From assembly GCF_002798015.1 (NCBI RefSeq), contig NZ_PGTZ01000009.1, positions 62,001 through 126,000 on the forward strand: 64,000 bases of DNA, given 5' to 3'. The notes below the pieces were generated by a model. The model was not told the DNA's origin. It made no database searches and saw nothing but the letters and a program-made list of their open reading frames with translations. The DNA is from Luteimicrobium subarcticum. GTDB lineage: Bacteria > Actinomycetota > Actinomycetes > Actinomycetales > Cellulomonadaceae. Positions 33,873-58,512 of the stretch are shown here, piece by piece (the first letter of the stretch is position 1; each line of letters begins with the position of its first letter). The translations under genes and the position numbers were made by a program.

Positions 33873-35159
33873 TCAGGGCAGCGCCGGCAGGGCCGGGTCG
33901 AGGAGCCACGCGTCCAGCAGCGCGTCGTGCCCGACGAGCGCCCGCAGGTCGGCGGTCGACGCGGACGCGTGCCGGTGGCTCCGCGTCCACTCGCGCACGG
34001 CGTCGAAGAACGCGTCGTCGCCGAGCACGGTGCGCAGCGCGTGCAGGGTCAGGGCGCCGCGCTTGTAGAGGCGGTCGTCGAACATGTTCTCCGGGCCCGG
34101 GTCGCCCACGACGAGGTCCTGCGGCAGCGCGGCGAGCCGGGCGTGCGCCTCGCGCGCGAGGCGGTCGGCCGTCGGGCCCCCGGACGCCTCGGACCACAGC
34201 CACTCGGCGTAGCAGGCGAAGCCCTCGTTGAGCCAGATGTCGGACCACCGGGCGACGGACACGCTGTTGCCGAACCACTGGTGCGCGAGCTCGTGCGCGA
34301 CGAGCCGGTCCCACGACCCGGTGCCGTCGAGGTGCTGCGCACCGAACACGGACATGCCCTGCGCCTCGAGCGGGATCTCGAGCGGGTCGGCCGTCACGAC
34401 CAGCCGGTACGACGTGAACGGGTACGGCCCGAACAGGTCCTCGAACGTCCGCATCAGCTGGTCGTGCCGGACGAGGTCGGCCGCGACGGCGTGGTGCTGC
34501 GCGCGCGGCGCGTGCGCGACCTGCGGCACCCGGCTGCTCGCGAGCACGAGCGGCTCGTACCGCCCGACGTGGACCGCTGCCAGGTAGGTGCACATGGGGT
34601 CGGTGCGGCCGAAGCGCCACACGCGCGTCGAGCCCTTGCGCGCCACGTGCTCGAGCTCGCCGTTCGTGACGACCGCGTAGTCGGCCTCGGTCGTGACGGT
34701 GATCCGGAAGGTGGCGCGGTGCGACGGGTGGTCGTTGCACGGGAACCACGTGGGCGCGCCGTCGGGCTGGTTGGCGCACAGCGACCCGTCGGTCAGCTCC
34801 TCCCAGCCGACATCCCCCCAGGTGCCCATCGCGGGAGCCGGACGCCCGGAGTAGCGCACCGCCAGGGTGAGGCGGGTGCCCGCGCGCCGGACACGTCCGA
34901 GCCGGACGCGCACCCGCCCACCCGAGTGCTTGTACGGCGCACGCTGCCGCTCGACCGTCACGTGCTCCACGCGCAGGCGCACGAGGTCGAGCTCGACGAC
35001 GTCGGTGTCCTCCAGCAGCCGCAGCTCGAGCGTCGCAGCACCGTCGAGACGGTTCGACGCGACCTTGTACTCGAGGTCGAGGTCGTAGTGGTCGACGGTG
35101 TACGCGGACGACCCGCGGTGGGGCACGTACGGGTCGAGCGCGGGCTCGCGCACGGACAC
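33873..35159 (-). CDS. M1-family zinc metallopeptidase with altered exopeptidase motif
   Basis: This 428-residue protein has the M1 zinc site HELAH (289-293) and NEGFACY (Glu 312), preceded by an N-terminal beta-domain. Where aminopeptidases have GAMEN, it has EAQGMS (265-270), so it lacks the usual amino-terminus-recognising Glu and may be specialised. It lacks the long C-terminal helical domain of large members, as is typical of short actinobacterial M1 proteins. It lies directly downstream of the Pls/PosA-type synthetase. In poly-epsilon-lysine producers an M1 peptidase sits beside pls and degrades the polymer; a similar self-protection or trimming role is inferred. Confidence 0.85.
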   Translation of the reverse strand: MSVREPALDPYVPHRGSSAYTVDHYDLDLEYKVASNRLDGAATLELRLLEDTDVVELDLVRLRVEHVTVERQRAPYKHSGGRVRVRLGRVRRAGTRLTLAVRYSGRPAPAMGTWGDVGWEELTDGSLCANQPDGAPTWFPCNDHPSHRATFRITVTTEADYAVVTNGELEHVARKGSTRVWRFGRTDPMCTYLAAVHVGRYEPLVLASSRVPQVAHAPRAQHHAVAADLVRHDQLMRTFEDLFGPYPFTSYRLVVTADPLEIPLEAQGMSVFGAQHLDGTGSWDRLVAHELAHQWFGNSVSVARWSDIWLNEGFACYAEWLWSEASGGPTADRLAREAHARLAALPQDLVVGDPGPENMFDDRLYKRGALTLHALRTVLGDDAFFDAVREWTRSHRHASASTADLRALVGHDALLDAWLLDPALPALP

Positions 35160-35237
35160 TCCTCTCCGGCCGGGACGATCCGGCGATGCTACGTGACCGT
35201 GCGGCCCGACGCCGTCAGGGCCGTGGGTCGGGGGGCG

Positions 35238-38200
35238 TCAGGGACGAGGGGGCAGAACCGGCCCGTCCGTCCACGCGGCGATCGGGTTGCCGCGCCAGCG
35301 CGTCCCCGCCGGGACGACCTCGCCGCGCATGACGAGCGAGCCGGGGCCCACGCTCGCGCCCCGCTCGATCCGGGCGGCGGGCAGGACGACACCGTGCGGG
35401 CCGAGCGTCGCGCCAGGCTCGAGCTCGACCCGGGACAGGCTCATGACACGGTCGTGGAACAGGTGGGTCTGCACGACGCACCCGCGGCCCACGGTGGCAC
35501 CGTCACCGAGGGTCACGAGGTCGGCCTCGGGCAGCCAGTACGTCTCGCACCACACGCCGCGCCCGACGCGCGCTCCCATGAGCCGCAGCCAGCCGGACAT
35601 GAGGGGCGAGCCGGCCACACGGTCCGCGAACCAGGGAGCGGCGACGGTCTCGGTGAACGTGTCGGCGAGCTCGCCGCGCCACACGAACCCGCTCCACAGC
35701 GGGTGGTCGTGCTCGCCCACGCGCCCCGCGAGGACCCACTTGGCGAGCGCGGTGACGGAGGCACCGAGGACGCCCACGGCGAGCAGCACGACGCCGGTGG
35801 TGAGCGCCGCCCAGCCCCAGCCGACGGTGCTCACGACGCGCTGCACGACGACCAGCGCGAGGGTCGCCAGGTACGCGGCGGTGATCGGGGCGAGCAGCCG
35901 GCACGCCTCGACGAGCCCGCGCGCGACGACGAGCCGACGGGGCGGCGCGAACGTCAGCCCTTCGTCGACGTCCGACTGGACGACGCGACGCAGCCGCGTG
36001 GGCGGGCTGCCGAGCCACGACGTGCCCGCCTTGGCCTTGGTCGGCGCGGCGGACAGGACGGCGACGAGACCGTTCTTCGGGACGGAGCGGCCCGGCGCGG
36101 TGATGCCGGAGTTCCCGAGGAACGCCCGCTTGCCGACGCGCGCCCGAGCGACGCGGACCCACCCGCCGCCCAGCTCGTACGGGGCGACCATCGTGTCGTC
36201 GGCGAGGAACGCGCCATGGGCGATGTCCATCATCGCGGGGATGCCGACGACGGTGGAGATCTCGACGTCGCGCCCGACCCGCGCGCCGAGCAGCCGCAGC
36301 CACACGGGGGTCACGACGCTGCAGTAGATCGGGAAGAGGACCGTCCGGGCGTGGTCCATGAGCCGCTCGGTCGCCCACGCCGCCCAGCCGGTGGCGCTCT
36401 CCGCGGGGTGGTACCCCTCGTGCACCAGCAGCCCGAGCGTCCGGACGAGGGCCCAGACGAGCACAGCGTGCACGAAGAACGCGACGAGCGCGGCCACGGG
36501 CACCCAGAGGGCCAGGGTCAGGAGCTCGTGCCGCACCGCGGAGTCGATCGCGCCGGTGGTCGCGCTGCCGTCGAGATCGCCCAGCCACCCGGCCCCGGCG
36601 ACGAGCACGAGCAGGCCGACCGCGACGGAGACCACGGGCAGCAGGCTCAGCCCGATCCCCCCGAGCACGTACGCGAGCGCCCAGCCGCGCGACCGGGGCG
36701 GCCGCTCGTCGGGCCACGGGTGGTGGGTCTCGGCGCGCACCCGGACGGCGGGCGAGCCGGCCCAGTACTCGTCGGGACCGACCTCGCCCCAGACGGCGGA
36801 CCCGGCCGCGACGTCCGCTCCGGCACCGACCCGGGCACCCGGCAGGAGGGTGCTCCGGGCCCCGACGGTCGCGCCCGCCCCCACGTGGACGTGCCCGACG
36901 TGGACGACGTCCCCCTCGACCCAGTAGCCCGACAGGTCGACCTCCGGCTCGACGGCGCTGCCGCGGCCGAGCGTGAGGAGCCCGGTCACGGGCGGCAGGG
37001 CGTGCAGGTCGACGCCGCGGCCCACCTTCGCACCGAGCAGCCGCGCGTACAGGCCGACGAGCGGGGCGCCCGCCGCCGTGACGGCCCCGGCCGAGCCGAC
37101 GAGCTGCTCCACCGCCCAGATGCGCAGGTGGACGCTGCCGCCGCGCGGGTGGTCTCCGGCGCGCACCCCACGCAGCAGGAGGCGCGCGGCGGCGACGGAC
37201 AGCAGCATCCGGCCGGGCGGGCTGACCAGGACGACCCAGCCCGCGGCGACCCACCACCACGACACCGGGCGCACCCAGCCGAGCGACGTGGTCGCCGCGA
37301 GGACGGTGTCGACCGCCGCGAGCCACGTGAGCCAGCGCAGGCCGGCGAGGGTCCGCACGAGGACGACGACGGCCACCTGGACCGCCTGCGCGCGCCGTGG
37401 CACGGGGCGGACCGGCGCCCGCCCGGTGCCGCCCGCGAGACCGGCCGTGCCCGACGTGCCGTGCGCCGGGTCGGTGCCCGGGTCTGCCCCCTCGCCCGCG
37501 GGCGACCCGGCGGGCGCGTGCTCGTCGAGCCAGATCGCGAGGTCCCCCACGGACGGGTTGTCGTACAGGTCGGCGACCGTGAGGTGCGGGACGCGCGCCC
37601 GCAGCGCGGACACGACCTGCGCGGCCGTGAGGCTGCCGCCGCCGAGCTCGAAGAAGTCGTCGTCCGCGCTCGTCGGCGCCGTGCCGAGCACGCGCTGCCA
37701 CACGTCGGCGACGTGCGCCTCGGTGGGCGACGCGCTCGTCCACGACTCCGCCGCTGCGTCCGCGCCGTCCCCACCGTCTCGGGCGGCGGCAGCGCCGACG
37801 GCGGCGGCCGGGAGCGGCCACGGCAGCCCGTCCCGGTCGACCTTCCCGGACGTCCGGGTGGGGATCTCGTCGACGACGGCGAGCAGCGGGACGAGGGCCG
37901 CCGGGAGGGTCCGTCGCAGCGACGCGGTCGCGGCCCGCGCGTCGAACGCCTCGCCCGCGGCCGGGACGACGTACCCGACGAGGAGGCTCGTCCCCGAGTC
38001 GCTCCGGCGCACCGCGGCGGCCGCGGCGACCACGCCCGGCAGCTCGAGGAGAGTCGCGTCGATCTCGCCCAGCTCGATGCGGCGGCCGCCCACCTTGACC
38101 TGGTCGTCGGCACGGCCCACGAACAGCAGGCCCGCGGGGTCGCGGACGACGAGGTCGCCGCTGCGGTACGCGCGCTCCCACCCGAGCGTCGGGGCGGGGG

Positions 38201-39281
38201 CGTACTTCTCGGCGTCCTTGGCAGGGTCGAGGTAGCGCGCGAGCCCCACGCCGCCGATGAACAGCTCGCCGGTCTCGCCCTCCGCCACCGGGGTGCCGTC
38301 CGGGCCCACGACCGCGAGGTCCCACCCGTCGAGCGGCAGGCCGATGCGGACCGGGCCCTCGCCGTCCAGCAGCGCCGCGCAGGCGACGACGGTCGCCTCC
38401 GTCGGCCCGTACGTGTTCCAGACCTCGCGGCCGGGCACCGCGAGGCGGGCCGCGAGCTCGGGCGGGCACGCCTCGCCACCGAAGATCAGGAGCCGCACGC
38501 GGTCGAGCGTGTCGGGCGGCAGGAGACCCGCCAGCGTCGGGACGGTCGACACCACGGTGATGCGCTGCGCCGCGACCCACGGGCCCAGGTCGAGCCCCGC
38601 GCGGACGAGCGAGCGCGGCGCCGGGACGAGGCACGCGCCGTGTCCCCACGCGAGCCACATCTCCTCGCACGACGCGTCGAACGCGACCGACAGCCCCGCG
38701 AGCACCCGGTCCCCCGGCCCCAGCGGCGCCGCCTGCAGGAACAGGCGCGCCTCCGCGTCGACGAACGCCGCCGCGTTGCGGTGGCGCACCGCGACACCCT
38801 TCGGCTTGCCGGTCGAGCCCGACGTGAAGATGACCCACGCGTCGTCGTCGGGGCCCGGCCGCGCGGGCCTGCGCGGCGCACGGGTCGCGACGGCCACGAT
38901 CCCCTCGTCCTCGATGACGGCCGCGACGTCCGCCTCGGAGAAGACCAGGTCGGCCCGCTCGTCCGGGTCGTCGCGGTCCACCGGCACGTAGGCGGCGCCC
39001 GCCGCGAGGACGCCGAGGATCGACAGGTACAGGTCCGCGCGGCCCGACGTCGCCCGCACCCCGACCCGGTCACCCGACCCGAGGCCCAGGTCGGCGAGCT
39101 CGCGGGCACGGCTCCGGATCTCCGTGAGGAGCTCCCGGTAGCTCAGCACCCACGAGCCGTCGTCCAGCGCCGGGGCGTCCGGGTGCCGGCGGGCCACGTC
39201 CTCGAGGACGTCGAGCAGCGTCCGCGGCGCGGGCGCACGGTCCCCGGCGAGCAACGGGTCACGGTCGGTCTGGATGGCCAC
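35238..39281 (-). CDS. Pls/PosA-family non-ribosomal peptide synthetase-like membrane protein
   Basis: This 1347-residue protein has an adenylation domain (FTSGSTGKPKG 152-162, NTYGPTEA 289-296, Asp 202 in FDAS at the amino-group-binding position, catalytic Lys 480), and a carrier domain with phosphopantetheine Ser 550 (FFELGGGSL). A terminal region of about 700 residues has six membrane segments in clusters and three stretches of hexapeptide-like repeats, the terminal domain unique to the Pls/PosA group. Members make homopolymers such as epsilon-poly-lysine at the membrane; the monomer here is not readable with confidence. ATG 39281. An M1 peptidase gene follows, as in pls loci. Confidence 0.85.
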   Translation of the reverse strand: MAIQTDRDPLLAGDRAPAPRTLLDVLEDVARRHPDAPALDDGSWVLSYRELLTEIRSRARELADLGLGSGDRVGVRATSGRADLYLSILGVLAAGAAYVPVDRDDPDERADLVFSEADVAAVIEDEGIVAVATRAPRRPARPGPDDDAWVIFTSGSTGKPKGVAVRHRNAAAFVDAEARLFLQAAPLGPGDRVLAGLSVAFDASCEEMWLAWGHGACLVPAPRSLVRAGLDLGPWVAAQRITVVSTVPTLAGLLPPDTLDRVRLLIFGGEACPPELAARLAVPGREVWNTYGPTEATVVACAALLDGEGPVRIGLPLDGWDLAVVGPDGTPVAEGETGELFIGGVGLARYLDPAKDAEKYAPAPTLGWERAYRSGDLVVRDPAGLLFVGRADDQVKVGGRRIELGEIDATLLELPGVVAAAAAVRRSDSGTSLLVGYVVPAAGEAFDARAATASLRRTLPAALVPLLAVVDEIPTRTSGKVDRDGLPWPLPAAAVGAAAARDGGDGADAAAESWTSASPTEAHVADVWQRVLGTAPTSADDDFFELGGGSLTAAQVVSALRARVPHLTVADLYDNPSVGDLAIWLDEHAPAGSPAGEGADPGTDPAHGTSGTAGLAGGTGRAPVRPVPRRAQAVQVAVVVLVRTLAGLRWLTWLAAVDTVLAATTSLGWVRPVSWWWVAAGWVVLVSPPGRMLLSVAAARLLLRGVRAGDHPRGGSVHLRIWAVEQLVGSAGAVTAAGAPLVGLYARLLGAKVGRGVDLHALPPVTGLLTLGRGSAVEPEVDLSGYWVEGDVVHVGHVHVGAGATVGARSTLLPGARVGAGADVAAGSAVWGEVGPDEYWAGSPAVRVRAETHHPWPDERPPRSRGWALAYVLGGIGLSLLPVVSVAVGLLVLVAGAGWLGDLDGSATTGAIDSAVRHELLTLALWVPVAALVAFFVHAVLVWALVRTLGLLVHEGYHPAESATGWAAWATERLMDHARTVLFPIYCSVVTPVWLRLLGARVGRDVEISTVVGIPAMMDIAHGAFLADDTMVAPYELGGGWVRVARARVGKRAFLGNSGITAPGRSVPKNGLVAVLSAAPTKAKAGTSWLGSPPTRLRRVVQSDVDEGLTFAPPRRLVVARGLVEACRLLAPITAAYLATLALVVVQRVVSTVGWGWAALTTGVVLLAVGVLGASVTALAKWVLAGRVGEHDHPLWSGFVWRGELADTFTETVAAPWFADRVAGSPLMSGWLRLMGARVGRGVWCETYWLPEADLVTLGDGATVGRGCVVQTHLFHDRVMSLSRVELEPGATLGPHGVVLPAARIERGASVGPGSLVMRGEVVPAGTRWRGNPIAAWTDGPVLPPRP

Positions 39282-39960: not shown

Positions 39961-42414
39961 TCAGCCCTCGTCGCCCTTGCCGGACTCCGAGGACGCGGTG
40001 GGCGTCGCGGCCGACGCCGTGTCGGACGTCTCTCCGGTCGGCGACCCGCTCGGCGTCCGCGCTGCCGTCGCGGTCGGCTCCGGCGTCGGCGTGGGGTCGT
40101 CCGCAGGAGACGACGTGGCCCCGGGCGTCGGGGTCGGGGTGGACGTCGGCTTCGGCGTGGGCGTCGGAGTGGACGTCGGCTTCGGCGTGGGCGTCGGAGT
40201 GGACGTCGGCTTCGGCGTGGGCGTCGGGGTGGACGTCGGCTTCGGGGTGGGCGTCGGGGTGGACGTCGGCTTCGGGGCGGACGTCGGCCTCGACGTGACG
40301 GCGGGCCGCGGCGACGCGGTCGGCTTCGGCGTGGACGTCGGCTTCGGGGTGGCGGTGGGCTTCGCGTCGCCGCCCTCGTCGTCCCCGTCGTGGCGACCCG
40401 CGGCCAGCGTGGCGTACCACTCGGCCGAGTGCCCGGACCCCGGGCTCGTCGGCGAGATCCCTCCGGCGAAGAACTCGAAGTGCCACGGCTCGGGCTTCGA
40501 CCCGTCGAGCCGGGCCCACGTCGGGTTGTCCCAGCCGTAGTCCGGCGCGTTCGCGCGGAGCCAGTAGTACTCCGCCGACAGACCCGACGAGATCGGCGAC
40601 CCCAGGTCCAGCGCCAGCCCCCAACCGTGGTTGGACGTGCCAGGGATCGCGGCGAGCCTCGGCTTCGCCGCGTAGACCGCGACCTGCTCGGAGAACGAGC
40701 GGTACGAGTCCGTGATGGGGATGTGGTGCCCGAACTTCTTGACGAACGCCGCGTCGAGAGCGACGAGACGTTCCTCCGCGTCGCACCGCAGCTCCTGTCC
40801 CGGGGAGAACGGGACCGCGCACAGGGCAGAAGCGGGGATCTCACCGTTCGCGTAGTGCGACGTCGAGGACGCGAACTTGTCGACCACCCGCTGGAGCGCG
40901 TCCGCGAGCGACGTGTTCGCCCGCGCGTCGGCCTTCTCGGCAGACTGGAGGACCTTCTGCAGGCGCACGGCGGACGCCGCCACCTCGTCCCACGTGACGT
41001 CGGTGCGCCCGTCGGGGGAGGTGACCGTCGTGACCGCGTCCGGGTCGACGGGTGCGAGCAGGCCGGCGGGTGCCGGGACGCCGCCGTCCGGGAGGTCCGC
41101 CGACGCCGTGACGCCCGTCGAGCCGGTCGACGTGCCCGCCGGCGCCTCGGTCGGTGCCGTCGTCGGCGTCGGCGCGGGGGTCGTCGCAGCCGCAGCCGTG
41201 GGTTCCGTGGCCGGGGTCGTCGGCTCGCCGGTGGGCTCGCCCGTGGGTTCGGTGGTCGGCGCGGTCGGCTCGGTCGGCTCGGTCGTGGGCGCCGAGGGGG
41301 TCGTCGCCGGGACGGTCGGCTCCGCTGCCGGCTCGGTGGCGACGCACGGGTCGTCCTTCGCCGTGGTGCCGGCAGTGGACGTCCCCTCGGTCGACGTGCC
41401 GTCGACGCTGTCGGTGGCCTGGTCCGGCAGCGCCTGGTCCGGCAGCGCCTGGTCCGGCAGAGCGACATCGGTCTCGGCGGCGGTGCCCGGCTGCGCCTGC
41501 CAGGCGGCCGTGAGGCTTCCCGGTGCCCGGACCAGCGCGGCGGTCGAGTCGGGCGCCGCCACCCCGACCACGGGCGTGGTCGCGCCGACGAACGCCGACG
41601 CGGCCGACCACGACGAGACGGCGGGGGCCGTCGGGTCGGACGGGGTGCTGGTCGGCGTCCCGGCGGTGGGCGCCACGCACACGTCCGACGACACCCGGGC
41701 GTCGTCCGCGACGGCGGGCGAGATCGCGGGCGACGCGCTCACGGTCGCGCCCGCGGCGGGCGACGCACCCTGCGACGTGGTCGGCGCGGCCGTGCCTGTC
41801 GTCGTCCCCGTGGTCGGCGCCGCCGTGTCAGCCGGCGCCGTCGGCGCAGCCGTCGGGGTGGACGCCGTGCCGGCCGCCGGTGCGCCGGTCGGCTCGGGCG
41901 CTGCGGACGCCGCGGGGGCGGTCGCGGCGGTCGTCGGAACCGCGGCAGAGGGCACCGCAGCGGGCGTCGGCACCGCGTCGGCCACCGGGTCCGCGGACGT
42001 CGTCGCACCGTCAGCGGACGTGTCGCCCGTGGCGCTCTGCTGCGCGTCGTACGTCGCGAGCAGGGCACCCGTCTCGCCTGCGGCCTGCGCGAGCGCGGAC
42101 GTCGACGACGAGGGGTGCGCCGAGAGGTACTCGTCCGCCTCGCGGAGCAGGCCCACGACGTCGGACCGGTCCAGCGTCGCGGCGGCGGTCGTGGTGGAGG
42201 TCTCCGGGGTGGCGGGCGCCACGGGCGTCGCAGCGGCTGCCTGGTCGGCGGCGCGCGGTGCGACGGAGGCGGCCGCCGTGCTGGGGACGTCGTCGGCGAC
42301 GGGCGCGGGGTCGTCGTGCGGCTGTGCGCTCGCGACGCCCATCGCGGCGACGGCGAGACTCGCCGTCATCGCACCTGCGAGCGCGCCGGCACGTCCCGGA
42401 GCGCGGCGCTTCAC
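39961..42414 (-). CDS. Secreted M15 D-alanyl-D-alanine carboxypeptidase with long repeat-rich regions
   Basis: This protein of about 817 residues has a signal peptide ([20 protein letters not shown]) and a very long Ala/Thr/Pro/Val-rich region (to about residue 490) holding three tandem LPDQA units. A VanY-type M15 domain follows ([41 protein letters not shown], with His, Asp and Glu-x-x-His zinc-site pattern). A C-terminal tail has five [10 protein letters not shown] repeats. Peptidoglycan trimming at the cell wall is the family role; the tails look like cell-wall-spanning stalks. GTG 42414 follows GAAGGA; an in-frame ATG at 42459 is an alternative. Confidence 0.8.
40127..40280 (-). repeat. 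Five tandem 30-bp repeats encoding [10 protein letters not shown]
   Basis: Units starting at 40141, 40171, 40201, 40231 and 40261 are nearly identical on the plus strand (GGACGTCGGCTTCGGCGTGG...), with the first partial unit before 40141. They are in frame in the carboxypeptidase gene, so copy number changes the length of the Pro/Thr stalk by 10 residues each. A separate 15-bp triplicate at about 41415-41460 encodes LPDQA three times. Confidence 0.9.
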
Positions 42415-42769
42415 GCGTCCCGTCCTTCGGTCGTCACGGACCAGCCCCCTGGTGCCCAACCCACAGCCTTGCCTCGCCTCCCGCCGTCGCCGGCGTCACC
42501 ACGTGTCCCTGCAGCGGTCACCCGCCGACCCGGAGGTGGTGGTGTGACCCCCACCACGCTACGTCACAGATGTGGTGGACGGTCGACCGGATGGCGAAGT
42601 CACCCCCCGGTGTGCGGAGTCGTCGACCGGAGGTCGTCGACCGGACGCCCGGTGTACGCCCGGGCGATGCGCAGAGGACGCCCGGACGACTTCCGGTCTG
42701 CACGGAACCTCCACGTGCGCGAAACCTGGCGCCCGGCGACTTCCCAGGATCGGTCGGCAGACTGTCCGC
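42415..42769. promoter_or_regulatory. Intergenic region with three GTCGACCGGA copies
   Basis: No gene is seen in this 355-bp gap between the divergent carboxypeptidase and membrane-protein genes. GTCGACCGGA occurs at 42582, 42622 and 42636; the last two are part of a 13-bp direct repeat (GTCGTCGACCGGA, 14 bp apart). A GGTGGTG/CACCACG inverted arrangement lies near 42535-42560. A CAGACT box at 42758-42763 stands 6 bp before the ATG at 42770 and could be its -10. The repeats may bind a regulator of either gene. Confidence 0.45.
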
Positions 42770-53196: not shown

Positions 53197-53811
53197 TCAG
53201 GCGTCCGGGTCGGAGACCGGAGAACCGGCGTCCTGGTGCTCCGCGACGAACCGCTCGACACGACGGTCCGGCACCAACCACACCAGCGCGACGGCGACGT
53301 ACAGCGCCACCCCGACGTACGGCTCCCAGAACGACGCCGCGATGCCCAGCAGGTACAGCACCGGCGACGCCTTGCCCTTCCAGTCGCCCCCGACGGCCTG
53401 CGCGAGCGGCCCGTCGTGCCCCTGCCGCCTGACGAGCGACGCCTGGAGCAGCCAGTACGCGACGGCCGCGAGCAGCAGGTCGATGCCGTACACCGCCGTC
53501 GGGACGGGGTCGAACCCGGTCTCGTCCATCCATCCCGTGGTGAACGGGAACAGCGACAACCAGAAAAGCAGGTGCAGGTTCGCCCACAGGACGACGCCGT
53601 CCACCCGGTCGGCGAGCTGCAGCATGTGGTGATGGTTGTTCCAGTAGATGCCGACGTACACGAACGACAGCAGGTACGTGAGGAACGTGGGCGCGACCTC
53701 GCGCAGCGCCTCCCAGGTCGATCCCTCGGGGGTCCGCAGCTCGAGGACCATGATCGTGATGACGATCGCGAGCACGCCGTCGCTGAACGCCTCGAGCCGG
53801 CCCTTGTTCAT
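53197..53811 (-). CDS. TMEM175/DUF1211-family membrane protein (possible potassium channel)
   Basis: This 204-residue protein has six hydrophobic segments, with the family signature RLEAFSDGVLAIVITIMVLEL in helix 1 and a YVGIYWNNHHHML stretch after helix 2. Bacterial members form tetrameric potassium channels that lack the usual TVGYG filter. The length is typical. It starts at ATG 53811, divergent from the HrpA gene. Confidence 0.88.
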   Translation of the reverse strand: MNKGRLEAFSDGVLAIVITIMVLELRTPEGSTWEALREVAPTFLTYLLSFVYVGIYWNNHHHMLQLADRVDGVVLWANLHLLFWLSLFPFTTGWMDETGFDPVPTAVYGIDLLLAAVAYWLLQASLVRRQGHDGPLAQAVGGDWKGKASPVLYLLGIAASFWEPYVGVALYVAVALVWLVPDRRVERFVAEHQDAGSPVSDPDA

Positions 53812-53886
53812 GCGTCGAGGATCCCACGAGGGACTTTCGCACCGCCGCGCGAATCGGGTTGCCAAGACTTGAGAGGATGGAACCCC

Positions 53887-56800
53887 GTGAGCACCGAACC
53901 CCGTCCCGACGCGCGCCCCGAGGGCGCTCCCCGCGCTGCGGCGCGCCCGGACACGTCGTCCGACGGGGCGCCGCGACGCCGCCGGTCGGGGCGAGGACGC
54001 GGCCGGGGCCCCGGACGTCCCGCGACGCGTGTGAGCGACGCCCACCTGACGCGCATGCGCGAGCGGCGCGAAGCGGTCGAGCTCGGCACGATCCGCTACC
54101 CCGAGCAGCTCCCCGTGAGCGCGCACCGGGACGAGATCGCGGCCGCGATCCGCGACCACCAGGTCGTGATCGTCGCGGGCGAGACCGGTTCGGGCAAGAC
54201 GACCCAGCTCCCGAAGATCCTGCTCGACCTGGGCCGCGGACGCGCCGGTCAGATCGCGCACACCCAGCCCCGGCGGATCGCCGCCCGCTCCGTCGCGGAG
54301 CGCGTCGCGGAGGAGCTCGGCAGCCCGCTCGGCGAGGTCGTCGGGTACCAGGTGCGGTTCACCGACGAGTCGTCGGACTCGACCCTCGTCAAGGTCATGA
54401 CCGACGGCATCCTGCTGGCCGCGATCCAGCGCGACCCGCAGCTCCTCGCCTACGACACGATCGTCGTCGACGAGGCGCACGAGCGGTCCCTGAACATCGA
54501 CTTCCTGCTGGGCTACCTCTCGCGGCTGCTGCCGCAGCGCCCGGACCTCAAGCTCGTCATCACGTCCGCGACGATCGACTCCGCCCGGTTCGCGCGCCAC
54601 TTCGGGACGCCGGCGCCCGCCGGCGTCGCCGCGGTTGCCGCCGCGGACACCGCGGGAGCCGCCGCCGACGACGTCGTCCCCGCGCCCGTCATCGAGGTCT
54701 CCGGACGCACGTTCCCCGTCGAGATCCGGTACCGCCCGCTGGTCGCGGACGCGGAGACGCCCGACGACGGCGCCCCAGGCGGTGCGCGCGCGGGCAAGGG
54801 CGGCAAGGGACCCGCCCCGAAGAAGCCCCGCGAGGACCGCGACCTCGTGACGGGCATCGTCGACGCGGTCGACGAGCTGATCGCGCTGGACCGCACGCGC
54901 CGCGACCCGGGTCCGGGCGACATCCTCGTGTTCCTGTCGGGCGAGCGGGAGATCCGGGACGCCGCCGACGCCCTGACCGGTCACTTCGGGGAGCGCGGCC
55001 GCGACCCGCGCGACCCGGGCTACGTCGAGGTGCTGCCGCTGTTCGCGCGACTGTCCGCGGCCGAGCAGCACCGCGTCTTCGCGGCGCACGCGGGCCGCCG
55101 GATCGTGCTGGCGACCAACGTCGCGGAGACGTCGCTGACGGTCCCGGGCATCCGGTACGTCGTCGACCCGGGCACGGCACGCATCTCGCGCTACTCGAAG
55201 GCGACGAAGGTCCAGCGCCTCCCCATCGAGCCGGTGAGCCAGGCGTCGGCGAACCAGCGCTCGGGACGCTGCGGCCGCCTGTCGGACGGCGTCGCGATCC
55301 GCCTGTACTCCGAGGACGACTTCGCGGCCCGCGAGCCGTTCACCGAGCCGGAGATCCTGCGGACGTCGCTCGCGTCCGTGATCCTGCAGATGATCTCGGT
55401 GGGCGTGGTCGGCTCGCCCGACGACGTGGCCCGGTTCCCGTTCGTGGACCAGCCCGACACGCGGGCCATCCGGGACGGCGTCCAGCTCCTCACCGAGCTG
55501 GGTGCGCTCGAGCAGGTGCACGACGACGGCGCCTCGCGCACCCGCCTCACCGAGACGGGCCGACAGCTCGCGCAGCTCCCCATGGACCCGCGCCTGGCGC
55601 GGATGATCGTCGAGGGCTCGCGCCGCGGCGTGGCGCGCGAGGTCACGATCGTCGCCGCCGCACTCTCCATCCAGGACCCCCGCGAGCGCCCGACGGAGGA
55701 GCGCGCGCAGGCGGACCAGATGCACGCGCGCTTCGCGGACCCGACGTCCGACTTCCTGAGCTACCTGAACCTGTGGCGGTACGTCCGCGAGCTGCAGCGC
55801 GACCTGTCGGGCAACCAGTTCCGTCGCCGCGTCCGCTCGGAGCACCTGAACTTCCTGCGGATCCGCGAGTGGCAGGACCTGGTCTCCCAGCTCCGCGACA
55901 CCTCCAAGCCCCTGGGCATCCGCTGGGGCAGCTCGGCGCACGCGCAGGACCACCGGGAGGCGGCGGGGGGGCCCGGGGACGCGAAGGCCGTGGCGGGCCT
56001 GGCGGGAGGCGCCCGAGGAACGAGGGCGCCGGATGGAAGGCCGAGCACCCCGGGCTCCCCCGCCGCCGACCCCACGACCGACCCCCACGACGAGCACACC
56101 ACCGACCCCCACCGTCACGCCTGGGACGCCGACACCATCCACCAGGCCCTCCTCTCCGGCCTCCTGTCACAGGTCGGGATGCAGCAGACGGCGGACATCA
56201 AGGCGTCCGCACGCCAGGGCCGCGACCAGGGCCAGCTGAAGCGGATGGCCCGGCAGGCGCGCAACGAGTACCTCGGTGCGCGGGGCATCCGGTTCGCCGT
56301 GTTCCCGGGGTCGCCGCTGAGCAAGAAGCCGCCGGCGTGGGTCATGGCGGGCGAGCTGGTGGAGACGAGCCGCCTGTGGGCGCGCGACGTGGCGCGGATC
56401 CAGCCGGAGTGGGTCGAGGAGGTCGGCGCGCACCTCGTGAAGCGCACGTACTCGGAGCCGACGTGGTCGTCGCGGCGCGGCGCAGCCACCGTGGTCGAGA
56501 AGGTGCTGCTGTACGGGGTGCCGGTCGTCGCGGACCGGCAGGTCCTGTACGCCAAGGTCGACGCGGAGGCGGCGCGCGAGATGTTCGTGCGGCACGCGCT
56601 CGTCGAGGGCCAGTGGTCGACCCATCACGCGTTCTGGAAGCAGAACCGGACGGTGCTCGACGAGGCCGAGGAGCTGGAGGCGCGCTCGCGTCAGCGGGGG
56701 CTCGTCGTCGACGACGACGTCCTGTTCGCGTTCTACGACGCCCGCGTGCCGGCGTCCGTGGTGTCGGCCCGCCACTTCGACCAGTGGTGGAAGACAGCGC

Positions 56801-58512
56801 GACGTCGCACCCCCGACCTGCTGGACCTCACGCTCGACCTGCTCGTCCCGCAGGCCGGCGAGATCGACACCACCCAGTTCCCCGAGTCGTGGCCGCAGAG
56901 CGACCTGACGCTCCCGCTGACGTACCAGTTCTCCCCCGGCACGGACGCGGACGGCGTGACCGTCCACGTGCCCGTGTCGGTCCTCGCGCGCGTGACGCCC
57001 GACGGGTTCGACTGGATGGTCCCCGGGCTCCTCGACGAGCTCACCACCGCGACGATCCGCTCGCTGCCCAAGCCCGTCCGTGTGCAGCTCGTCCCGGCCC
57101 CCGACGCCGGGCGCGACGTCGCCGACTGGCTCCGCGCGAACACGCCCACCTGGGCCGACATGGCCCGCGCCGGCGACATGGCCGAACCGTTCCGCGCCGC
57201 GTTCACGCGCGCAGTCCGCGCCGTGCGAGGCGTCGACATCCCCGACGACGCGTGGGCCGGGCAAGCCGCGCGGCTGCCCGCGCACCTACGCATGACCTTC
57301 CGTGTCGTGTCCGAGCCCGAGCGCGGCGTCGCACAGGTGCTCGGCGAGGACAAGGACCTCCTGGGGTTGCAGCGGAAGCTGGCGGGGCGGGCCGAGGCGG
57401 CGGTACGGACGGCGGTGCGGGCGGCGTTGGAGGCGGCTCGGGCGTCGGCGGGGGTCGACACCGTGGCTGGGGCACAGGCCCGCCTCGCGCCGCCTTCTTC
57501 CGAACGGTCCGGTTCCGCGTCCGCAGGCGCTCCGAGTGAGGGGCTCCCGGGGCGGTTGGTGGCCGAGGTCGGCGTGCTCGACGGGTGGCCCCCGGTCGAC
57601 GTGCTCGGCGGGGATGCCGGGCGGTCGTTGCCCGACGTCGTGGAGACGCGGGTGGGCGCCGGTGCGGTGGTGCGCGGGTATCCCGGGCTGGTGGTCGAGC
57701 CGGGCGCGAAGGGCGGGGACGTCGTCGCGCTGCGCGTGCACGCGGACCGCGACCGCCGCGACGCCGAGCACGCCGACGGTGTGCGGACGCTCCTGCTGCG
57801 CGAGGTCGCGCTGCCCGTGGGCCGGGTGACGTCGCGGTGGACGGGGACGCAGGCGCTCACGCTCGCGTCGAGCCCCTACCGGACCACGGACGCGCTCGTC
57901 GACGACGTGCAGCGCGCGGCCGTCCGGTCGCTCACGAGCGGGCCGACGGCGGTGCACCCCGACGCCCCCGACGCCGGGGCCGTCCGCGACCTGGCGGCGT
58001 TCGACGCGGCGCGCGGGTTCGTGCGCGAGCACCTGGAGGACGAGGTGCACCGGGTCGTCGGGCACGTCGTCGCCGCCCTGAGCGCCGCGCGCACCCTGGA
58101 CGGCGAGATCCGTGCGACGTCCAGCCTGGCGCTGCTCAACACCTTGACGGACCTGCGGGAGCAGCAGGCCGCGCTGGTTCCGGCGGGGTTCGTGTCCCGG
58201 ACGCCCGCGCACCGGCTCCCGCACCTCACGCGGTACCTGCGGGCCGCGTCAGCGCGTCTCGACAAGGCGCGGTCGAACCCGCACCGGGACGCCGAGCTGG
58301 CGTGGCACGTCCACGACGTCGAGCAGGCGTACGAGCGGGCGCGGGCCGCGTACACGGCCGGACGCCGCGACCCGGCGCGGGCGGCCGAGCTCGCGGACGT
58401 GCGCTGGCAGATCGAGGAGCTGCGGGTGTCGTTGTTCGCGCAGCAGCTCGGGACCGACGGCCCCGTGAGCGAGAAGCGGATCCGGAAGGCGCTCGACCCG
58501 TCGGGCTGGTGA
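53887..58512 (+). CDS. hrpA: ATP-dependent RNA helicase HrpA (DEAH-box)
   Basis: This 1541-residue helicase has an Arg/Gly-rich N-terminal tail (about 50 residues), motif I GETGSGKTT (98-106), DEAH (195-198), SAT (227-229), a helicase C domain, and the OB-fold/DUF3418 region typical of HrpA. Its length exceeds the usual 1300 residues because of low-complexity insertions, one after helicase motif III (about residues 240-330) and one around residues 690-750 (Gly/Ala/Pro/Asp-rich). It probably unwinds structured RNA in mRNA processing. GTG 53887 has no clear ribosome-binding sequence and lies 8 bp after GAGGAT. Confidence 0.93.
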   Translation: MSTEPRPDARPEGAPRAAARPDTSSDGAPRRRRSGRGRGRGPGRPATRVSDAHLTRMRERREAVELGTIRYPEQLPVSAHRDEIAAAIRDHQVVIVAGETGSGKTTQLPKILLDLGRGRAGQIAHTQPRRIAARSVAERVAEELGSPLGEVVGYQVRFTDESSDSTLVKVMTDGILLAAIQRDPQLLAYDTIVVDEAHERSLNIDFLLGYLSRLLPQRPDLKLVITSATIDSARFARHFGTPAPAGVAAVAAADTAGAAADDVVPAPVIEVSGRTFPVEIRYRPLVADAETPDDGAPGGARAGKGGKGPAPKKPREDRDLVTGIVDAVDELIALDRTRRDPGPGDILVFLSGEREIRDAADALTGHFGERGRDPRDPGYVEVLPLFARLSAAEQHRVFAAHAGRRIVLATNVAETSLTVPGIRYVVDPGTARISRYSKATKVQRLPIEPVSQASANQRSGRCGRLSDGVAIRLYSEDDFAAREPFTEPEILRTSLASVILQMISVGVVGSPDDVARFPFVDQPDTRAIRDGVQLLTELGALEQVHDDGASRTRLTETGRQLAQLPMDPRLARMIVEGSRRGVAREVTIVAAALSIQDPRERPTEERAQADQMHARFADPTSDFLSYLNLWRYVRELQRDLSGNQFRRRVRSEHLNFLRIREWQDLVSQLRDTSKPLGIRWGSSAHAQDHREAAGGPGDAKAVAGLAGGARGTRAPDGRPSTPGSPAADPTTDPHDEHTTDPHRHAWDADTIHQALLSGLLSQVGMQQTADIKASARQGRDQGQLKRMARQARNEYLGARGIRFAVFPGSPLSKKPPAWVMAGELVETSRLWARDVARIQPEWVEEVGAHLVKRTYSEPTWSSRRGAATVVEKVLLYGVPVVADRQVLYAKVDAEAAREMFVRHALVEGQWSTHHAFWKQNRTVLDEAEELEARSRQRGLVVDDDVLFAFYDARVPASVVSARHFDQWWKTARRRTPDLLDLTLDLLVPQAGEIDTTQFPESWPQSDLTLPLTYQFSPGTDADGVTVHVPVSVLARVTPDGFDWMVPGLLDELTTATIRSLPKPVRVQLVPAPDAGRDVADWLRANTPTWADMARAGDMAEPFRAAFTRAVRAVRGVDIPDDAWAGQAARLPAHLRMTFRVVSEPERGVAQVLGEDKDLLGLQRKLAGRAEAAVRTAVRAALEAARASAGVDTVAGAQARLAPPSSERSGSASAGAPSEGLPGRLVAEVGVLDGWPPVDVLGGDAGRSLPDVVETRVGAGAVVRGYPGLVVEPGAKGGDVVALRVHADRDRRDAEHADGVRTLLLREVALPVGRVTSRWTGTQALTLASSPYRTTDALVDDVQRAAVRSLTSGPTAVHPDAPDAGAVRDLAAFDAARGFVREHLEDEVHRVVGHVVAALSAARTLDGEIRATSSLALLNTLTDLREQQAALVPAGFVSRTPAHRLPHLTRYLRAASARLDKARSNPHRDAELAWHVHDVEQAYERARAAYTAGRRDPARAAELADVRWQIEELRVSLFAQQLGTDGPVSEKRIRKALDPSGW

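What the first reader, a model, noticed from the sequence alone, without database searches (positions are those of the whole stretch)
33873..39281. Pls/PosA-type synthetase with adjacent M1 peptidase: possible poly-amino-acid locus
A 1347-residue adenylation-carrier-membrane synthetase is followed directly by an M1 zinc peptidase. In poly-epsilon-lysine producers a peptidase of this family lies next to pls and hydrolyses the polymer. The pair may therefore make and trim a cationic homopolymer, a product not expected of a plant-polymer degrader. The downstream lipoprotein may belong to the set.
Basis: partly seen in the sequence, partly recalled or inferred. Interest (0 to 1): 0.7.

Follow-up and report, generated by a model that had tools for sequence, protein, structure and literature searches.

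The report
Poly-lysine synthetase with its paired peptidase
This is a two-gene unit, already known from other actinobacteria, in which one enzyme is predicted to string lysines into the antimicrobial polymer epsilon-poly-lysine and the next gene to cut that polymer; finding it here is a solid but ordinary extension of a known system.

Summary
On the minus strand the window holds a 1347-aa Pls-type synthetase (35238-39281) and, 78 nt downstream, a 428-aa M1 zinc peptidase (33873-35159). The synthetase passes the curated Pls/PosA model (710.6 bits, cut-off 423.1). Its closest solved relative is the epsilon-poly-lysine synthase A-domain 7wew (1e-191), and its ten-residue pocket, DAESIGTVVK, is identical to that enzyme's. 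The peptidase keeps the M1 zinc and catalytic residues. The pairing is old: a peptidase orthologue lies downstream on the same strand in 80 of 80 best-match named loci. In a 101-genome family sample the close peptidase occurs in 34 genomes, 33 with Pls and one with a broken Pls. It is missing beside 5 Streptomyces-type copies, whose genomes hold another, paired copy. The operon is published for S. albulus (PMC4361855) and Corynebacterium (PMC8117764). Verdict: new member of a known kind. Open point: no export signal was seen, though S. albulus PldII is reported outside the membrane.

The parts
35238..39281 (-). pls-type synthetase gene, 1347 aa: adenylation, carrier and membrane/tandem-domain terminal part
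37803..39236 (-). adenylation domain (residues 16-493); pocket residues 202, 203, 206, 245, 266, 268, 290, 298, 299, 480 = DAESIGTVVK
   Evidence: 7wew match E 1e-191; pocket read-out; pocket positions placed by motif, GrsA positions recalled
37527..37712 (-). carrier (PP-binding) domain, residues 524-585
   Evidence: PF00550, 46.5 bits
35280..37382 (-). Pls/PosA terminal domain, residues 634-1334: three beta-strand-rich (hexapeptide-type) blocks between long hydrophobic helices
   Evidence: TIGR02353 whole profile; AlphaFold2 model, mean pLDDT 83.3; hydropathy scan
33873..35159 (-). PldII-like two-domain M1 zinc peptidase gene, 428 aa (426 if the second GTG is the start)
34281..34295 (-). zinc site HELAH, residues 289-293 (with E312 and Y365 further on)
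   Evidence: H289, E290, H293, E312, Y365 invariant in 132 aligned sequences, window included; their roles recalled from the M1 family

Best explanation
This is an epsilon-poly-L-lysine (or very close poly-lysine) biosynthesis unit of the pls-pldII kind. Pls adenylates L-lysine, loads it on its carrier domain, and its membrane-embedded tandem domains join the loaded lysine to the epsilon-amino group of free lysine or of the growing chain, giving a short polycation that leaves the cell. The adjacent M1 peptidase cuts the polymer, so that the producer survives it and can take the lysine back. Shown here: gene identity, domain order, pocket identity, catalytic residues, conserved pairing. Inferred from relatives: substrate, polymerisation mechanism, export, peptidase substrate, self-protection.
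For: TIGR02353 at 710.6 bits. A-domain closest to 7wew. Pocket identical to 7wew, as in 131 of 139 loci read. Published rule: lysine-activating members have Ala at the second pocket position, PDAP/PDAB enzymes Phe, PosA Met (PMC10522769, passages). A divergent member, L184 (34% identity), has the Phe-type pocket DFEYNGTVTK and no same-strand M1 neighbour. M1 orthologue downstream of Pls in 80 of 80 named loci, which are the best matches only; in 32 of 33 family loci over the cut-off other than the window, the exception cut by a contig end; and in 8 of 8 lysine-pocket loci newly fetched from a phylum sample, against 0 of 6 other loci with a related terminal domain. Family co-occurrence in 101 genomes: both 33, Pls only 1 (contig end), close M1 only 1 (broken Pls), neither 66. 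Pls and M1 distances correlate (Spearman 0.69, 0 of 300 permutations as high, n 126). Published: S. albulus pls and pldII overlap by 4 nt and form an operon (PMC4361855, passages); C. variabile pls made epsilon-PL in S. [quoted passage not shown]
Against: No chemistry was done. Five Streptomyces-type Pls loci with lysine-type pockets have no M1 match in the roughly 5 kb downstream; four of them are 72-74% identical to 7wew in the A-domain, among the highest, the fifth 67%. Each lies in a genome whose other Pls copy does have the M1. The window peptidase has no hydrophobic export or anchor segment in a simple scan, whereas PldII of S. albulus is reported outside the membrane (PMC9205021, passages). 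The two other genomes of the genus, one of them 81% complete, lack Pls. The window peptidase was not compared with the PldII sequence itself, which I did not find.
Confidence: 0.88

Rival explanations
1. The synthetase makes a different cationic homopolymer (poly-ornithine, poly-diaminobutyrate, poly-diaminopropionate or poly-beta-lysine), and the peptidase is tuned to that.
For: TIGR02353 is named for the whole Pls/PosA family, and pocket codes alone do not prove substrates.
Against: The pocket is identical to 7wew. The published PosA code is DMEHNGTVSK; PDAP/PDAB enzymes have Phe at position 2; poly-beta-lysine enzymes branch with the PDAP/PDAB group (PMC10522769, passages and one section). 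The peptidase neighbour is published as a context of pls and not of the PDAP and poly-DAB synthetases (PMC8117764, Results).
Confidence: 0.05
2. The pair is silent in nature: the genes are intact but this strain makes no polymer.
For: C. variabile made no detectable epsilon-PL although its pls works in S. coelicolor (PMC8117764, Results). Pls is patchy: 34 of 101 family genomes, and one family genome, G095, has a broken Pls.
Against: Both window frames are open with the diagnostic residues kept, and both proteins share their nearest relatives in the Cellulosimicrobium group.
Confidence: 0.05
3. The peptidase is a housekeeping aminopeptidase that merely lies next to pls.
For: It is an M1 enzyme by Pfam, and its best solved relative is a Deinococcus two-domain M1 peptidase whose record titles name no link to poly-lysine.
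Against: It tracks Pls across the family and is distinct from another M1-like gene of the genome (35% over residues 141-406, in a frame of 863 aa).
Confidence: 0.02

Closest known systems
S. albulus pls-pldII operon
   Same: Same ten-residue pocket as 7wew, same enzyme family, peptidase gene directly downstream (PMC4361855, PMC9223678, passages).
   Different: 78 nt gap instead of the published 4-nt overlap (PMC4361855); 7wew lies outside the clade that holds the window; no export signal seen in the window peptidase, PldII reported on the cell surface (PMC9205021, passages).
Corynebacterium variabile pls-peptidase operon
   Same: Non-streptomycete actinobacterium with pls and a peptidase gene in one operon and a lysine-type pocket (PMC8117764, Results).
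   Different: Other lineage; that enzyme was shown to make epsilon-PL in S. coelicolor, this one is untested.
PosA, delta-poly-L-ornithine synthetase of Acinetobacter baumannii
   Same: Same enzyme family: adenylation, carrier, terminal membrane part (PMC10522769, passages).
Deinococcus two-domain M1 zinc peptidase (6a8z, 6iff)
   Same: Fold of the window peptidase: model TM-score 0.87-0.90, 30-31% identity over the whole length.
   Different: No Pls link is named in those record titles.

Membership tests
Pls/PosA cationic homopoly-amino-acid synthetases | Adenylation and carrier domain followed by the NRPS terminal domain, no condensation or thioesterase domain | tested here: met
   Pfam and TIGR02353 hits; no condensation or thioesterase domain among the five Pfam hits
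Pls/PosA cationic homopoly-amino-acid synthetases | Three tandem acetyltransferase-like domains separated by six membrane helices | tested here: met
   AlphaFold2 model shows three beta-strand-rich blocks between long helices; matches are hexapeptide acetyltransferases, at low TM-score. The hydropathy scan alone gave five hydrophobic segments, not six
epsilon-poly-L-lysine synthetase (Pls) | Lysine-type ten-residue pocket | tested here: met
   DAESIGTVVK, identical to 7wew
epsilon-poly-L-lysine synthetase (Pls) | Peptidase gene in operon with pls | tested here: met
   Same strand, 78 nt apart, no terminator-like site in the gap, arrangement conserved in relatives; co-transcription itself not tested
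epsilon-poly-L-lysine synthetase (Pls) | Makes epsilon-linked lysine polymer | not testable with these tools
   needs expression and mass spectrometry
PldII epsilon-poly-lysine-degrading peptidase | M1 zinc site and catalytic residues | tested here: met
   HExxH, E312 and Y365 invariant in 132 aligned sequences. That PldII itself is of family M1 is recalled; the papers seen call it a zinc aminopeptidase or metallopeptidase
PldII epsilon-poly-lysine-degrading peptidase | Orthology to S. albulus PldII by sequence | not tested
   PldII sequence not found: the best match to 7wew was 74%, so no S. albulus genome; the paper describing PldII is not held
PldII epsilon-poly-lysine-degrading peptidase | Located on the outside of the membrane | tested here: inconclusive
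   No hydrophobic segment in the window protein; 123 of 132 sequences have none by a simple Kyte-Doolittle scan, nine have one
PldII epsilon-poly-lysine-degrading peptidase | Cleaves epsilon-poly-lysine | not testable with these tools
   needs an enzyme assay

The most novel reading that the evidence does not exclude
The fixed synthetase-peptidase pair is a make-and-recycle module rather than an antibiotic gene with a resistance gene: a cytoplasmic, export-signal-free peptidase takes back the lysine of a polymer held at or in the cell, as cyanophycinase does for cyanophycin (recalled). This would explain why most lysine-type Pls loci examined keep the peptidase, in genera as different as Nocardia, Rhodococcus, Mycobacterium, Arthrobacter and Cellulosimicrobium.
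Probability: 0.15. Interest if true: 0.55.

Novelty: new member of a known kind. Interest (0 to 1): 0.25.

Why it matters
It adds another lineage to a module published for Streptomyces and coryneform bacteria. It also gives counts showing that the peptidase is a nearly constant partner of lysine-type Pls, with a named set of exceptions. About a third of the sampled genomes of this family (34 of 101) may be able to make a polymer that is used as a food preservative.

Tried and rejected
Lipoprotein as a third component: not supported; no tblastn match at 1e-5 in 80 named loci or 40 stretches of family and order genomes. Downstream flanks were as short as about 1.4 kb in some loci, and a fast-changing lipoprotein could be missed. 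NCBIfam names it an SCO4651 family lipoprotein. The YbaK-like gene upstream likewise had no match (the stretches hold little upstream sequence). Any other conserved third gene: in 80 loci the widest flanking ORF cluster spans 18 loci; ORF calling was crude and some of those ORFs may be spurious. Other homopolymers: disfavoured by the pocket. Promoter and terminator scan: no sigma-70-like site, one terminator-like site inside pls, none between the genes; uninformative at this G+C. Finding S. albulus PldII: 35 genomes of the genus of G123 searched, no near-identical match to 7wew. Papers on poly-lysine in this family: 285 papers held two of the terms, 20 were listed, and none of these 20 holds the word polylysine; weak evidence of absence. 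Literature listings were otherwise used only to choose papers. The Mantel correlation has no control for shared species phylogeny, nor has the Fisher test.

Rows dropped: L082 was left out because its translation holds a stop. In one search, L082 and rows at least 97% identical in Pls were dropped. In one search, L167 could not be read because the frame chosen misses the A-domain. In one search, only same-strand M1 frames over 350 aa were used. Sets overlap: L070/L153, L113/L160, L137/L166 and L067/L173 are identical in the A-domain, so counts from the named and family sets must not be added.

Full report
Observation. The window carries two minus-strand genes as described: 35238-39281 (1347 aa) and 33873-35159 (428 aa), 78 nt apart. 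Reading down the minus strand the order is a VanY-domain protein (42459-39961), a YbaK-like protein (39870-39400), the synthetase, the M1 peptidase and a lipoprotein (33794-32997).

The synthetase. Pfam finds an AMP-binding domain, a carrier domain and hexapeptide repeats. NCBIfam finds the Pls/PosA terminal domain over the whole profile at 710.6 bits against a cut-off of 423.1. The closest solved chain is 7wew, the epsilon-poly-L-lysine synthase A-domain (E 1e-191). That 7wew is the S. albulus enzyme is recalled; the call names only the molecule. The specificity pocket, placed by motif (GrsA numbering recalled), is DAESIGTVVK and equals that of 7wew. In one search, 133 of 141 rows (139 loci, the window and 7wew) had exactly this code; six differed by one residue, one row was unreadable (L167), and one, L184, had DFEYNGTVTK. 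AlphaFold2 on the terminal 747 residues with 30 sequences gave mean pLDDT 83.3 and pTM 0.85, with three beta-strand-rich blocks separated by long helices. Foldseek matches were mostly hexapeptide acetyltransferases at low TM-score. This fits the published architecture of three acetyltransferase-related domains and six membrane segments (PMC8117764, Results), though a plain hydropathy scan found five segments.

The peptidase. It has both M1 domains. Its fold is that of the Deinococcus two-domain M1 zinc peptidase (AlphaFold2 mean pLDDT 93.0; Foldseek TM 0.87-0.90). H289, E290, H293, E312 and Y365 are invariant in 132 aligned sequences, window included. Where other M1 enzymes have GAMEN (recalled) it has PLEAQ, with an invariant E265. 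No hydrophobic segment was found in it; 123 of 132 sequences have none and nine have one. Sequences were trimmed to about 15 residues before the aligned start, but the short gaps to pls in most loci leave little room for a longer N-terminus.

Conservation of the pair. All 80 have an M1 orthologue (44-65% identity) downstream on the same strand. In 73 the projected gap lies between -100 and 250 nt; in five (Tsukamurella and Williamsia) it is 607-2148 nt; two projected values (-115 and -1314) fall outside and were not examined one by one. In a family sample of 101 genomes, the window's own included, 34 have a Pls over the cut-off; of 14 well-known control genomes one does, Corynebacterium glutamicum. 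A close M1 match (E below 1e-80) occurs in 34 genomes: 33 of those 34, and G095, whose Pls is split over several frames. The one Pls genome without it, G102, ends at a contig edge. Of the remaining 66 genomes none reaches that level; the best are 42% over part of the protein in G004 and 32-34% in G006 and G030, and G036 holds an 88-residue fragment (63%) at a contig edge. Fisher's p is 2.6e-24, without correction for relatedness. In a phylum sample of 198 genomes, 10 have a match over the cut-off. Of 14 stretches then fetched, all 8 with the lysine pocket have the M1; the 6 others (codes such as DIWQSTANHK in four, unread in two) do not, but four of these six stretches are short or lie at contig ends or hold fragments of the domain.

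Exceptions. In the genus of G123 (the genome of Streptomyces locus L144), 20 of 35 genomes gave 26 A-domain matches. I fetched 20 of the 26: 14 have the M1, 5 do not, 1 is cut by a contig end. The five (L202, L203, L206, L211, L216) have lysine-type pockets. With 7wew they fall outside the 99%-supported clade that holds all paired loci; how 7wew relates to them is unresolved. Four of the five are 72-74% identical to 7wew, L216 67%; the paired L204 is also 72%. Each of the five lies in a genome whose other fetched Pls copy is paired (G143, G130, G144, G142, G133). So the pairing is very strong but not absolute per gene. S. albulus itself is reported to have pldII next to pls (PMC4361855).

History in this lineage. 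The window Pls groups with Cellulosimicrobium and other members of its family (SH-aLRT 94), and the peptidase has its nearest relatives in the same group, as expected of a jointly inherited pair. The two other genomes of its genus lack Pls; one of them is only 81% complete.

Literature. PMC9223678 (passages): pldII follows pls, is translationally coupled to it, and its repression lowers tolerance and lengthens the polymer. PMC4361855 (passages): pls and pldII overlap by 4 nt and form an operon. PMC8117764 (outline, Results and Discussion): C. [quoted passage not shown] coelicolor, though not detectably in C. variabile or C. glutamicum; homologues occur in several coryneform genera with identical or highly similar pockets; the other synthetases have a different gene context. 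PMC10522769 (passages and one section): pocket rules and family tree. PMC9205021 (passages): bond formation and PldII activity on the cell surface. The original PldII paper is not held.

Mechanism. Lysine is adenylated, tethered and polymerised through its epsilon-amino group, as described for Pls (PMC9205021, passages); the peptidase cuts the product. For this strain these steps are inferred. Self-protection is the published role. The absence of an export signal leaves room for an intracellular recycling role, the most novel reading left.

Verdict. A well-supported, intact pls-pldII-type unit: a new member of a known kind, interest 0.25.

Noticed in passing
L202, L203, L206, L211, L216: Streptomyces-type copies of lysine-pocket Pls without the M1 neighbour, in genomes whose other Pls copy has it.
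   Followed up: partly
L226, L229, L232, L235: NRPS-like genes with a terminal domain related to Pls/PosA but with pocket read-outs DIWQSTANHK, DI-QSTANHK, DI-QSTAVMK and DIWQHGTVHK and no M1 neighbour in the stretch fetched; product unknown.
   Followed up: no
L179 (G095): A family member whose Pls and neighbouring M1 are both split over several frames, either decay or assembly error.
   Followed up: no
window 39961-42459 (-): 832-aa protein with a VanY-type carboxypeptidase domain between long Pro/Thr/Ala-rich low-complexity stretches.
   Followed up: no
L097, L099, L108, L109, L110: Tsukamurella and Williamsia loci in which the M1 gene is separated from pls by about 600 to 2150 nt; ORFs were called in the gap in three of the four loci checked (L097, L108, L109, not L099).
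   Followed up: no
window 53236-58512 (+): 1758-aa DEAH-type helicase ORF with a nearly complete DUF3418 domain.
   Followed up: no
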